From Candidatus Magasanikiibacteriota bacterium (GTDB taxonomy: Bacteria > Patescibacteriota > Patescibacteriia > Magasanikbacterales > GWA2-37-8): a stretch of 32,500 nucleotides of DNA. Shown piece after piece: positions 10,770 through 17,479 of the stretch (position 1 is its first letter; each line of letters opens with the position of its first letter). The stretch spans positions 1-32,500 of the forward strand of contig CALRIA010000007.1 of the NCBI GenBank assembly GCA_943359595.1, read 5' to 3'. The translations under genes and the position numbers were made by a program. The notes under the pieces were generated by a model. It had not been told where the DNA came from, ran no database searches, and saw nothing but the letters and a program-made list of their open reading frames with translations.

Positions 10770-13700
10770 ATGCAGACTGCCATTGCGACTAAAACTTTTA
10801 AATTAGATAAAGACTTCCAATATCCTGATGGCGCCATGCATTTTCCTCGTCACTATACCAAAGATGGTGTCAGTCCTTTTGATATGTTTACTTATGTGGT
10901 TCGTCCTTCAGTAATTCGCGAACCAAGTGGTAAATTGATTTTTGAAATGAATGATGTTGAAGTGCCAAAACAATGGTCTCAAGTGGCCACTGATATTTTG
11001 GCTCAAAAATATTTCCGCAAAGCTGGCGTGCCACAATATGACGATAATGGTCTACCAAAATTAAACATGGATGGCACTCCAATTTTAGGTCCAGAAAAAA
11101 GTGTGAAACAAGTCGCTCATCGTTTGGCTGGTACTTGGAGATATTGGGGGGAGAAGTATGGCTATTTTGCTAGTGCCAAAGATGCTCAAGTATTTTATGA
11201 AGAGCTGGTGTACATGATTATCAATCAAATGGTGGCCCCAAACTCACCACAATGGTTTAATACTGGTTTGTATTGGGCTTACGGCATCAACGGTCCGGCC
11301 CAAGGTCATCACTATGTTGATCCAGATACTGGTGTATTGACTCGCGCTACGGATTCTTATTCTCACCCTCAACCACACGCTTGTTTTATCCAATCCGTAA
11401 AAGATGATTTGGTAAATGAAGGTGGAATCATGGATTTATGGGTGCGTGAAGCTCGTTTATTTAAATATGGTAGTGGTACTGGCACCAATTTTTCCAGTCT
11501 TCGTGGTTTTGGTGAAAAACTTTCTGGTGGCGGACAGTCTTCTGGTCTGATGAGCTGGTTAAAAATCGGTGATCGCGCCGCTGGGGCGATAAAATCTGGT
11601 GGCACTACTCGTCGCGCCGCTAAAATGTGTGTGTTAAATATTGATCATCCGGATATTGAAGAGTTTGTTGGTTGGAAAGTAAAAGAAGAAGATAAAGTTG
11701 CCGCTTTAATCGCGGCTGGGTATGAGGGCGGTTATGAAGGTGAAGCTTATTTGACTATTTCTGGTCAGAATTCTAATAATTCTGTTCGCATTACTCATGA
11801 TTTCATGGAGGCAATGGTCAAAGACAATGGTTGGGATTTGCGTTGGCGTACTGATGGACGATCTTGTAAAAAATTGAAAGCTCGTGATCTTTGGGATAAA
11901 ATTGCTTATGCCGCATGGCGTTGTGCTGATCCTGGATTGCAATTTGATACCACTATTAATGATTGGCATACTTGTCCTGCATCTGGCAGTATCAATGCTT
12001 CCAATCCTTGTAGTGAATATATGTTTTTGGATGATACGGCTTGTAATTTGGCTTCGATAAATTTGGCACATTATTATGATCCGGAAACTTCTACTTTTGA
12101 TATTACCGGTTTTAAATATACTACGCGTGTCTGGACAGTGGTTCTTGAAATTAGTATTTTAATGGCTCAATTTCCTAGTGCAGAAATTGCTCAAAATAGT
12201 TATGATTTTCGTACATTAGGTTTGGGTTATGCCAATATTGGTAGTTTGTTGATGACTGCTGGAGTTGCTTATGATTCACCAGAGGCCTTGGCTTTTGCTG
12301 GTACAGTTACTGCACTAATGACCGCCGAATCTTATTCTACTTCCGCTGAAATGGCTAGCTATTTGGGCACTTTTAACAAATATAGCGAAAATCGTGACAA
12401 CATGTTGCGTGTTATGCGTAATCATCGTCGGGCGGTATTTAATGTGCGTGAAGACGAATATGAGGATCTGGCGGTAAAACCAGTTGGGATTGATCCACAA
12501 TTTGCTCCTGCCTACCTATTGGCGGCGGCTCGTGAAAGTTGGAATCGCACTTTGGAGATGGGTGAAAAATATGGTTTTAGAAATGCTCAAACTACTTTAT
12601 TGGCACCTACCGGTACAATTGGTTTATTGATGGATTGTGCCACTACTGGTGTGGAGCCAGATTTTGCTTTGGTGAAATTTAAAAAATTAGCTGGTGGTGG
12701 ATATTTTAAGATTGTGAATGAGTCTGTGCCGGTCGCTTTGAAAACTTTGGGTTATAAGGAAAATGAAGTGATCGATATCGTCGATTATCTTAAAGGACGG
12801 GCAACTCTTGTAGGTTCACCAGTTATTAACCATGAAAGTTTGATGGCCAAGGGTTTGACCAAAGAAGAGTTGGAAAAAATTGAAAAATCATTGGCTGGAG
12901 CATTTGAATTGCAATTTGCTCTCAACGCTTGGACTTTGGGTGAAGATGTACTCAAACGTTTAGGTTTTTCTAGTGAACAATTTTTGGACACTAACTTCAA
13001 TTTTCTTAAAGCGCTTGGTTTTACTGATGATGAAATTGAAAAAGCCAATGAATATGTCTGTGGTGCTATGGCCATTGAAGGGGCGCCATATCTAAAAGTA
13101 GAACATTATAAAGTATTTGATACTGCTAACAAAAATGGCAAAAAAGGAAAACGCTTTATTCATTATTTGGGTCACATTCGCATGATGGCCGCGGTGCAAC
13201 CATTTTTGTCTGGAGCTATTTCCAAAACTATCAACATGCCAAATGAAGCTACACTTGAAGATGTGAAGATTGCCTATATGGCTTCTTGGAAGTTGGGTTT
13301 GAAAGCTAACGCTATTTATCGTGATGGTTGTAAAATGTCTCAACCGTTGGCTAGTAAATCTGAGACCAAAAAAGAGGAAGTAAAGGTGGAAGAAACTGTT
13401 GAAGTTAAAGCAGAAACAAGAACAGAAGAAAAATCCGTCAAAACTTTTGCTCTTTCCAATCAAGAACAGACCATCATCAATCAATTGGTGGGAGTTGATC
13501 AAGCTCAGATGACTTATGCGCATGATGGTAGCACTCAAGGTACCAAGATTTATATTCACGGAGAGCAACGTAGAATGCCATACAAACGTAGTGGCCTGAC
13601 AATTAAGGCGAAAGTGGCTGGACAGAAAATTTTCTTACGTACGGGCGAATATCCAGATGGTCGCTTGGGTGAAGTATTTATAGATATGTATCGTGAGGGG

Positions 13701-14267
13701 GCAGCTTTCCGCAGTATGTTAAATTTATTTGCTATTTCTATTTCAACTGGTTTGCAATATGGTATTCCTCTTGAAGAATACGTTGATAAATTTACTTTTA
13801 CTAGATTTGAACCAGCTGGCATGACTGACCATCCTAATGTTCGTTCCTGTACTTCAATTGTGGATTTTGTTTTCCGAGTATTGGGAATGGAATATCTTGG
13901 ACGTACTGATTTTGTACAGGTCAAACCAACCGGCATCCAAAAAAATCGTGTACAGCAATTGGAAAAATTATTAGCAGAAGCGCGTGGTCAAAAAACTATG
14001 AGTTTTGATGATACTGCCGATGAAGTAGAAAAAGAAAAATTAGCTCTACAAGAACAGGAAGAAGATTTGGAAGATGAAGTAGCCAGTTTAATCACTTTGA
14101 CAAAATTAGAAAAAAAAGCGGAAATTGTAGCTACGACTGCCGCTGATCAAATGCTATCTGGAATGATGGGAGATGCACCGCCTTGTCCTACTTGTGGACA
14201 TATAACTATTCGTAGCGGTAGTTGCTATAAATGCCTCAATTGCGGAAGTACTACTGGGTGCAGTTAA
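10770..14267 (+). CDS. nrdJ: Vitamin B12-dependent (class II) ribonucleoside-diphosphate reductase
   Basis: NSPQWFNTG, GSGTGTNFSSLR, NPCSEY, ACNLASINL, C-terminal TSCPD-like and zinc-ribbon CPTCGH...CLNCGSTTGCS. Confidence 0.95.
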   Translation: MQTAIATKTFKLDKDFQYPDGAMHFPRHYTKDGVSPFDMFTYVVRPSVIREPSGKLIFEMNDVEVPKQWSQVATDILAQKYFRKAGVPQYDDNGLPKLNMDGTPILGPEKSVKQVAHRLAGTWRYWGEKYGYFASAKDAQVFYEELVYMIINQMVAPNSPQWFNTGLYWAYGINGPAQGHHYVDPDTGVLTRATDSYSHPQPHACFIQSVKDDLVNEGGIMDLWVREARLFKYGSGTGTNFSSLRGFGEKLSGGGQSSGLMSWLKIGDRAAGAIKSGGTTRRAAKMCVLNIDHPDIEEFVGWKVKEEDKVAALIAAGYEGGYEGEAYLTISGQNSNNSVRITHDFMEAMVKDNGWDLRWRTDGRSCKKLKARDLWDKIAYAAWRCADPGLQFDTTINDWHTCPASGSINASNPCSEYMFLDDTACNLASINLAHYYDPETSTFDITGFKYTTRVWTVVLEISILMAQFPSAEIAQNSYDFRTLGLGYANIGSLLMTAGVAYDSPEALAFAGTVTALMTAESYSTSAEMASYLGTFNKYSENRDNMLRVMRNHRRAVFNVREDEYEDLAVKPVGIDPQFAPAYLLAAARESWNRTLEMGEKYGFRNAQTTLLAPTGTIGLLMDCATTGVEPDFALVKFKKLAGGGYFKIVNESVPVALKTLGYKENEVIDIVDYLKGRATLVGSPVINHESLMAKGLTKEELEKIEKSLAGAFELQFALNAWTLGEDVLKRLGFSSEQFLDTNFNFLKALGFTDDEIEKANEYVCGAMAIEGAPYLKVEHYKVFDTANKNGKKGKRFIHYLGHIRMMAAVQPFLSGAISKTINMPNEATLEDVKIAYMASWKLGLKANAIYRDGCKMSQPLASKSETKKEEVKVEETVEVKAETRTEEKSVKTFALSNQEQTIINQLVGVDQAQMTYAHDGSTQGTKIYIHGEQRRMPYKRSGLTIKAKVAGQKIFLRTGEYPDGRLGEVFIDMYREGAAFRSMLNLFAISISTGLQYGIPLEEYVDKFTFTRFEPAGMTDHPNVRSCTSIVDFVFRVLGMEYLGRTDFVQVKPTGIQKNRVQQLEKLLAEARGQKTMSFDDTADEVEKEKLALQEQEEDLEDEVASLITLTKLEKKAEIVATTAADQMLSGMMGDAPPCPTCGHITIRSGSCYKCLNCGSTTGCS

Positions 14268-14363: not shown

Positions 14364-14903
14364 ATGATTAAAATTTATACTAAAACTGGTGACACTGGAG
14401 AATCTTCTTTGCTTGGTGGAAAACGTGTTACTAAAGATTGTATTACTCTACAAGTGATTGGAGAAATCGATGAACTTAATTCTAAATTGGGTGAAGTGAT
14501 AGCCCATCTTTGGGAAGAAGAACCGGCTCAATTTTTAAAAAAAATTCAACGGGATCTATTTAAAACTGGTGCTGAAATTGCCTCTTTGCAGACTGAATTT
14601 AATTCTAAAATAACAAAGATAGAGCAAGTAGAAATTGAGGAATTAGAGAATAATATTGATGCCTTTGCTGAACAATTGCCAGAGTTAGTTAATTTTATTT
14701 TACCTGGTGGAAATTTATCGGGAGCTCATTTACATCATGCTCGTACTATTTGTCGTCGAGTTGAACGAGTGTTGGTAGCTCTGGGAAAAGAAAAGGAAGT
14801 GCGCCCAGAATTATATAAATATTTTAACAGACTGAGTGATTATTTTTTTACTGCGGCTCGGTGGATAAATTGGCATGATGGTGTGGAGGAATATAAAGTT
14901 TAG
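14364..14903 (+). CDS. Cob(I)yrinic acid a,c-diamide adenosyltransferase (PduO/MMAB type)
   Basis: 'IYTKTGDTGESSLLGGKRVTKD', 'LNSKLGE', 'LPGGNLSGAHLHHARTICRRVER'. Confidence 0.92.
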   Translation: MIKIYTKTGDTGESSLLGGKRVTKDCITLQVIGEIDELNSKLGEVIAHLWEEEPAQFLKKIQRDLFKTGAEIASLQTEFNSKITKIEQVEIEELENNIDAFAEQLPELVNFILPGGNLSGAHLHHARTICRRVERVLVALGKEKEVRPELYKYFNRLSDYFFTAARWINWHDGVEEYKV

Positions 14904-14943: not shown

Positions 14944-14972
14944 TTGACATAGTAGTTTTTTAAAACTACAAT
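14944..14972 (+). promoter_or_regulatory. Consensus sigma70-like promoter
   Basis: TTGACA-17 nt-TACAAT; predicted TSS ~14979. Confidence 0.75.
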
Positions 14973-14978
14973 GAACAT

Positions 14979-15146
14979 TACTTTTCTCTATAGAGTTGCG
15001 ACAGATTTGATGTTTCAATCGGATCGGATTTTGAAAGCATTCTCTCTCCATTTCCACTATGCTTCGGTATCTTGGAATGGCGTTTTCTACATTTGATTCG
15101 CTAATTAATACATGCAGATCTGCTCGCAGCTCTGTGGAGAAAAGAA
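14979..15146 (+). ncRNA. Structured ncRNA, 6S-RNA-like architecture (candidate)
   Basis: Closing stem 14981-15006 / 15118-15144 (26 bp: 23 Watson-Crick + 3 G.U, one 1-nt bulge), extendable inward; large internal loops; apical hairpin with UUCG tetraloop (~15057-15068); begins at TSS of consensus promoter. Confidence 0.65.
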
Positions 15147-15152
15147 AAAATT

Positions 15153-15233
15153 GCCCAGGTGGTGTAATGGTAGCCACGCAGGACTTAAAATCCTGTTCCT
15201 TCGGGAGTGCGGGTCCGAGTCCCGCCCTGGGCA
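15153..15233 (+). tRNA. tRNA-Leu (TAA)
   Basis: gcccagg...cctgggc acceptor, loop CTTAAAA, long variable arm, GGTCCGAGTCC T-arm. Confidence 0.95.
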
Positions 15234-15331
15234 CAAATTAAAATAACGCATTAAATATGTGTTATTTTAATTTTAAATTAATAAGTGATATACTATCGGC
15301 ATATTTGTATTTGTAAAATTAAATTTTTATC

Positions 15332-17007: not shown

Positions 17008-17205
17008 TTTGTCTCCCAGAGTTGTCCGAAGTTGTCAAGACACAATGTAGCTTATTTTTTTGACAGTTGTCAATAACTATTGGTTAATATTTTATCTAAC
17101 TGTGGATAACTATAAGTTAATTTATATAAAATAAGCCTTTTTTTGCTTGTATATTAGCCAAAAATTGGCAAAAAACTTGACAATTTAATCATAACTACCA
17201 TCATT

Positions 17206-17234
17206 TGACAAAACTTCAAAATTGTATTATTATT
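17206..17234 (+). promoter_or_regulatory. Candidate rpoBC promoter
   Basis: TTGACA-17 nt-TATTAT, ~240 nt upstream of rpoB. Confidence 0.65.
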
Positions 17235-17479
17235 TATCCGCTTTCGTGGAAAGGCCACGCAATACAAAAAAACGCTTAACAAAGCAAAAAGTGGCAATTA
17301 TCAGTGTGATAAAAAAGCTGCTTGCAAGGTAATTCAATAATTTTTTTTCATGTTAACCTTGCCGTTTTCCTCTAAAATATAACAAAAAAGCCATAAAAGC
17401 CTATTTTTTTGGCACTTTTTTTGTTTAAAATTTTCCCCAATCACTTTTTTATAAAAAATTTATTTAAAAACTTCACCTT

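What the first reader, a model, noticed from the sequence alone, without database searches (positions are those of the whole stretch)
14944..15152. Undescribed 6S-like RNA upstream of tRNA-Leu
The consensus promoter TTGACA-17-TACAAT predicts a start at ~14979. From 14981 to 15144 the two ends form a 26-bp closing stem (cttttctctatagagttgcgacagat with atctgctcgcagctctgtggagaaaag; 3 G.U, one bulge), extendable by several more pairs inward. Then come large unpaired central regions and an apical stem ccatttcca...tggaatgg capped by a UUCG tetraloop. Long closing stem, central bubble and apical stem at ~165 nt is the architecture of 6S RNA (promoter mimic for RNA polymerase). The tRNA-Leu starts 8 nt after the stem, suggesting co-transcription and RNase processing. 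The ORFs predicted across it are spurious.
Basis: partly seen in the sequence, partly recalled or inferred. Interest (0 to 1): 0.75.

Follow-up and report, generated by a model that had tools for sequence, protein, structure and literature searches.

The report
Undescribed rod-shaped RNA, not 6S
Nearly every sequenced Magasanikbacterium (a bacterial lineage known almost only from metagenomes) carries one copy of a previously undescribed ~165-nucleotide rod-shaped RNA gene; it resembles the RNA-polymerase regulator 6S RNA in outline, but the same genome has a separate, better 6S candidate and this RNA lacks the open bubble that 6S needs.

Summary
The RNA is real; the 6S label does not hold. Window 14980-15144 encodes a structured RNA behind a TTGACA-N17-TACAAT promoter, 8 nt before tRNA-Leu(UAA). 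Its fold is far more stable than shuffles (z -8.5). Covariance models find one copy in 24 of 25 genomes of the same family (Ca. Magasanikbacteria), in three more named genomes, and in one genome of another order of the class. 29 of 48 base pairs show two-sided changes; 0 of 500 shuffles reach this. Promoters are kept in 23 of 24 copies, terminators follow many, and no reading frame is conserved. The usual neighbours in the family are rpoB and ftsK. It matches no Rfam family. A separate 6S candidate lies elsewhere in the same genome (G000:C26:10439-10574) and in 16 of 25 family members, all of which also carry this RNA. The supposed central bubble is mostly closed by covarying pairs; the only long exposed conserved stretch is an 11-nt pyrimidine-rich loop. 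I read it as a new ncRNA family: an autonomous rod RNA that presents this loop and a small conserved internal loop to an unknown partner. Existence is near certain; mechanism is inferred (about 0.45). RNA-polymerase binding (about 0.2) is not excluded.

The parts
14944..14972 (+). sigma-70-type promoter TTGACA-N17-TACAAT
   Evidence: 23 of 24 homologues have a promoter with at most 2 mismatches just upstream, against 215 of 4800 shuffled controls.
14980..15144 (+). structured ncRNA (mature part; start predicted at ~14979-14980)
   Evidence: z -8.5; one copy in 24/25 family genomes; covariation.
14993..15133 (+). conserved core found by covariance models R1/R2 (155.9 and 141.2 bits)
14981..15013 (+). 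closing stem, 5' strand (pairs with 15110-15144); contains conserved TGCG pairing CGCA
   Evidence: Pairs in model columns 5-8 with 176-179 never vary in 24 homologues; 12 of the 20 core stem pairs have two-sided changes.
15110..15144 (+). closing stem, 3' strand
15014..15019 (+). 5' side of the central element: small loop TTC (3 nt) then AAT, which pairs across
   Evidence: AAY pairs with RYU of 15101-15109; column 27-153 covaries CG:13 UA:6 AU:1.
15101..15109 (+). 3' side of the central element: 3-nt bulge, pairing partner, A-rich loop
   Evidence: the core motif UCAAUCGG / CGUAAAUUAAA is also kept in the other-order homologue L204.
15020..15029 (+). upper helix, 5' strand CGGATCGGAT (pairs with 15091-15100 ATTTGATTCG)
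   Evidence: helix 3; C-G to A-U and U-A exchanges.
15091..15100 (+). upper helix, 3' strand
15039..15048 (+). exposed pyrimidine-rich loop ATTCTCTCTC
   Evidence: Family consensus AAUUCUCUCUC is the longest unpaired stretch in the mean partition function; TCTCTCT invariant in the first 9 homologues.
15049..15080 (+). apical hairpin; sequence varies, pairing kept
   Evidence: Helices 5 and 6: all 7 pairs have two-sided changes.
15153..15234 (+). tRNA-Leu(UAA), probably on the same transcript here
   Evidence: no terminator between RNA and tRNA here or in L033, L034, L040.
15240..15284 (+). A+T-rich hairpin after the tRNA, possible terminator of the joint transcript
   Evidence: By eye and in the folded region; not called by the consensus scan.

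Best explanation
Shown: this is an autonomous non-coding RNA gene of Ca. Magasanikbacteria and at least one other lineage of the same class. It has its own strong promoter and ends at its own terminator or, in this genome, apparently reads through into tRNA-Leu. It folds into an almost continuous rod with a long closing stem, a small conserved internal-loop element, an upper stem, an exposed pyrimidine-rich loop and a variable apical hairpin. Inferred: the rod is a stable scaffold. The conserved internal loop with its conserved UGCG/CGCA stem, and the near-invariant UCUCUCU loop, are recognition sites for a partner (a protein, less likely another RNA), so it acts in trans as an RNP or sponge-type regulator. 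In this genome RNase P cutting at the tRNA 5' end would leave the RNA with its 3' end near 15152.
For: One copy in 24 of 25 family genomes, three further named genomes and a homologue with downstream ftsK in another order. 29 of 48 pairs with two-sided changes, 0/500 shuffles. Promoter in 23/24; terminators in many copies. No conserved frame. Position changes between genomes (rpoB/ftsK, tRNA-Leu, convergent genes in L042 and L052), so it does not depend on one downstream gene. Sequence conservation concentrates in the internal-loop element and the exposed pyrimidine loop while the apical hairpin drifts.
Against: No partner has been identified and no expression data exist. The motif GAGAGA is not enriched before start codons (0 against 0.46 and 0 against 0.42 expected in two genomes), and its overall count is only slightly raised (57 against 44 and 57 against 36), so no target class supports base-pairing by the loop. 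No protein family is a constant neighbour apart from rpoB and ftsK.
Confidence: 0.45

Rival explanations
1. It binds RNA polymerase: a second, highly divergent 6S (like B. subtilis 6S-2) or an independent RNAP-binding RNA in the manner of Ms1 or CoRP.
For: Length and rod shape with a long closing stem; strong promoter; one copy per genome; next to rpoB, divergently oriented, in about ten genomes. Papers expect more RNAP-binding RNA types (PMC11077062), and Ms1 was at first taken for 6S (PMC9130861). With a start at ~14979 the central element is at about nt 36, near the pRNA start at nt 40 of B. subtilis 6S-1 (PMC8876501).
Against: No Rfam 6S signal at E<=10 in 20 homologues and no R3 (6S) signal. 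A separate 6S candidate is in the same genomes. The central element is closed by covarying pairs. Distance from promoter to the element varies by about 19 nt between copies.
Confidence: 0.2
2. It is a cis-acting leader or attenuator of the downstream gene (ftsK or tRNA-Leu).
For: Upstream of ftsK on the same strand in 13 of 24 genomes and in the other-order homologue L204; tRNA-Leu downstream in 8. A terminator between RNA and ftsK would fit attenuation.
Against: The downstream gene differs between genomes; in L042 and L052 the first downstream ORF found is convergent. In L204 the closing stem is itself followed by a T run, and a TTGGCT/TATAAT-like promoter lies before ftsK.
Confidence: 0.12
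3. It is the lineage's missing SRP RNA.
For: Neither small nor large bacterial SRP RNA models find anything in 25 genomes of this order, and the RNA is near-universal in the family.
Against: The GGAA-capped domain IV with its AGCAG internal loop, the hallmark of SRP RNA (established knowledge), is absent: the apical loop drifts freely. No Rfam SRP signal. Sister families also lack Rfam SRP hits but lack this RNA too.
Confidence: 0.05
4. It is a trans-acting antisense sRNA whose UCUCUCU loop pairs with ribosome-binding sites.
For: Near-invariant exposed pyrimidine seed.
Against: GAGAGA is not enriched before start codons in two genomes.
Confidence: 0.12

Closest known systems
6S RNA (SsrS, Rfam RF00013)
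   Same: Rod-shaped RNA of about 160-200 nt with long closing stem, own promoter, often single copy
   Different: No covariance-model similarity, no open central bubble, and a separate 6S candidate in the same genome
Patescibacterial 6S candidate defined here (model R3; G000:C26:10439-10574)
   Same: Same genomes, similar size, own promoter and terminator
   Different: Different sequence motifs; weakly paired ~14-18-nt 5' bubble and a 3' hairpin; its sister-family relatives match Rfam 6S end to end, below threshold
Ms1 / CoRP RNAP-associated RNAs of Actinobacteria
   Same: Large structured RNAs outside Rfam 6S; Ms1 too was first taken for 6S
   Different: Ms1 is ~300 nt with extra terminal hairpins (PMC9130861); RNAP binding of the RNA here is untested
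Bacterial SRP RNA (RF00169, RF01854)
   Same: Rod-shaped small RNA
   Different: No domain IV (GGAA loop and AGCAG element); apical loop not conserved

Membership tests
6S RNA (RF00013) | Scores with the 6S covariance model | tested here: not met
   No hit in own genome, in the window RNA at E<=10, or in 20 family copies at E<=10; control genomes ring in 5 of 14.
6S RNA (RF00013) | Large, mostly unpaired central bubble between closing and apical stems | tested here: not met
   Column 27-153 covaries (CG:13, UA:6, AU:1), closing the region to a ~3x3 loop and a 3-nt bulge; compare the 6S candidate of the same genomes.
6S RNA (RF00013) | Rod of ~160-200 nt with long, interrupted closing stem and apical stem | tested here: met
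6S RNA (RF00013) | Is the genome's best 6S candidate (not itself a definition, but a check on the label) | tested here: not met
   R3 model built from sub-threshold RF00013 hits finds a different locus in 16/25 family genomes including this one; RF00013 hits fall on R3 coordinates in further genomes.
6S RNA (RF00013) | Binds sigma-70/A holoenzyme and templates pRNAs | not testable with these tools
   Needs biochemistry or small-RNA sequencing.
Ms1-type RNA | ~300 nt, 6S-like core with extra 5' and 3' hairpins | tested here: not met
   Length ~165 nt and no extra hairpins.
Ms1-type RNA | Binds RNAP core without sigma | not testable with these tools
   Needs RIP-seq or gel shift.
SRP RNA (RF00169/RF01854) | Covariance model match and conserved domain IV with GGAA loop | tested here: not met
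   apical loop varies.
Any other Rfam 15 family | Match at gathering score | tested here: not met
   none; the best sub-threshold hit is a eukaryotic miRNA hairpin model matching stem shape only.
Y RNA / YrlA | Y RNA covariance match and a Ro60 (TROVE) protein in the genome | tested here: inconclusive
   No RNA match; TROVE protein not searched.

The most novel reading that the evidence does not exclude
A new class of machinery-binding rod RNA in Patescibacteria, present alongside 6S and often encoded beside rpoB, that regulates RNA polymerase or another core machine by a mechanism other than the open-promoter mimicry of 6S.
Probability: 0.25. Interest if true: 0.85.

Novelty: categorically new. 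Interest (0 to 1): 0.58.

Why it matters
Few non-coding RNAs are described for the Candidate Phyla Radiation, whose small genomes keep few regulators. A single-copy RNA present in nearly every member of a family, with a homologue in another order, is likely to matter to these cells. The work also gives a Patescibacterial 6S model whose members score below Rfam's cut-off, so absence of 6S in these bacteria should not be assumed, and it separates two rod RNAs that are easily confused. The novelty claimed is of the RNA family; its function may still prove to be of a known kind.

Tried and rejected
6S identity. Spurious hairpin: rejected by covariation and conservation. Protein-coding gene: no open frame shared by the homologues. 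RBS-targeting seed: GAGAGA not enriched before starts and no clear target class. SRP RNA: with no domain IV. R2 hit in G031 (L205): inside a 627-codon open frame, chance. Four hits of the DNA pattern outside Patescibacteria (L074, L076, L081, L082): not matched by the RNA model, chance. A homologue at the rpoB-ftsK gap of the sister family: none seen; that gap holds an rpoB-directed leader instead. Literature searches found no paper that describes 6S in Patescibacteria: the one hit uses the name for SRP RNA.

Full report
OBSERVATION. The predicted transcript folds at -70.6 kcal/mol, against -36.2 +/- 4.0 for dinucleotide shuffles (z -8.5, 0 of 200).

HOMOLOGUES. A BLASTN search of 95 relatives gave nine RNA sequences beyond the tRNA. 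Their alignment already showed 16 of 54 pairs with two-sided changes. The covariance model R1 built from them finds one locus in 24 of 25 genomes of the same family and none in the 70 other genomes (extra hits are the complementary strand of the same loci). A 24-sequence model, R2, gave the same picture in the order and, under stricter filters with few candidates scored, in 384 genomes of the phylum (a weak negative). R2 confirms 15 of its 19 loci, among them three genomes not in the first set, and does not match the four loci outside Patescibacteria. With lax filters, R2 finds one homologue in another order of the class, G091 (E 1.2e-7). It is followed by ftsK and lies about 2.8 kb from rpoB on the opposite strand.

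GENE ANATOMY. 23 of 24 copies have a promoter with at most two mismatches to TTGACA/TATAAT directly upstream; shuffled controls reach that in 215 of 4800 cases. Many copies are followed at once by an intrinsic terminator. In four genomes an HNH endonuclease gene lies between RNA and tRNA-Leu. Elsewhere the RNA sits between divergent rpoB and ftsK (rpoB in ten loci, ftsK in thirteen). In L042 and L052 the first downstream ORF found is convergent. No reading frame is open across the RNA in all homologues.

STRUCTURE. On the 24-sequence alignment 43 model pairs give 25 pairs with two-sided changes and 92.5% paired cells, never reached in 500 shuffles and falling to 32-46% when slid. Reading the columns showed further pairs. 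AAY at columns 25-27 pairs with RYU at 153-157, where column 27-153 covaries CG:13, UA:6, AU:1. CUA-type triplets at columns 40-42 pair with 133-135. With these, 29 of 48 pairs have two-sided changes, again 0 of 500. What is left open is a ~3x3 loop, a 3-nt bulge, and an 11-nt pyrimidine-rich stretch (consensus AAUUCUCUCUC, ~90% unpaired). The alignment was fitted to the R1 structure, so percentages lean towards it; the added pairs were not part of that model, but I chose them by looking at the columns.

IS IT 6S? Rfam 6S does not match own genome or 20 copies at E<=10. It does give six sub-threshold hits in the sister family f5 (23.9-38.9 bits, gathering 46.4), five of them end to end; the printed alignments show the CACCCACCU-type 3' motif of the 6S consensus. 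A model built from these five (R3) finds one locus in most f5 genomes and, separately, in 16 of 25 family genomes, this one included (G000:C26:10439-10574, 57.4 bits). Those 16 loci show covariation of their own (27 of 42 pairs, 0/500), promoters and terminators and a weakly paired 5' bubble. Further f5 loci give RF00013 hits on the R3 coordinates (L097, L107, L109, L110). R3 has no hit on the RNA of this finding. All 16 genomes with R3 also carry the finding's RNA. The R3 loci of the family itself do not reach RF00013, so their 6S identity rests on the f5 link; I hold it at about 0.85.

FUNCTION. The evidence supports a trans-acting, stably folded RNA with two conserved recognition elements: the internal loop with its UGCG/CGCA stem, and the pyrimidine loop. 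What they bind is unknown. The loop as an RBS-pairing seed is not supported. An SRP role is suggested only by the lack of Rfam SRP hits in the order and fails on domain IV. A cis leader is contradicted by changing neighbours. RNAP binding remains open: papers report further RNAP-associated RNA types (PMC11077062), and Ms1 is the precedent for a 6S look-alike with another mode (PMC9130861).

VERDICT. A real and, as far as Rfam 15 and the held literature show, undescribed ncRNA family; not a 6S RNA by the tests available; mechanism inferred only.

Noticed in passing
G000:C26:10439-10574 (-), locus L119:401-536; model R3: 6S RNA candidate of the window's genome, below Rfam's threshold; R3 finds loci in 60 of 95 relatives.
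   Followed up: yes
window ~17205-17435 (+), upstream of rpoB (17480): rpoB leader: promoter TTGACA..TATTAT, hairpin GCAAGGUAA...UUAACCUUGC, then a terminator-like hairpin with T run before rpoB; the same layout in other family members and an analogous leader with CAAUGUGUCUGAA in the sister family. Looks like an rpoB attenuator. The single-sequence fold is not unusual.
   Followed up: partly
L031:1722-2198, also L035, L036, L037: HNH endonuclease ORF between the RNA and tRNA-Leu in four genomes; possible mobile element near a tRNA.
   Followed up: partly
25 genomes of the order: No small or large bacterial SRP RNA found by Rfam models; the SRP RNA of this lineage is either absent or very divergent.
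   Followed up: partly
window 10770-14267 and 14364-14903: Class II (B12-dependent) ribonucleotide reductase next to a cobalamin adenosyltransferase: B12 use in a reduced CPR genome.
   Followed up: no
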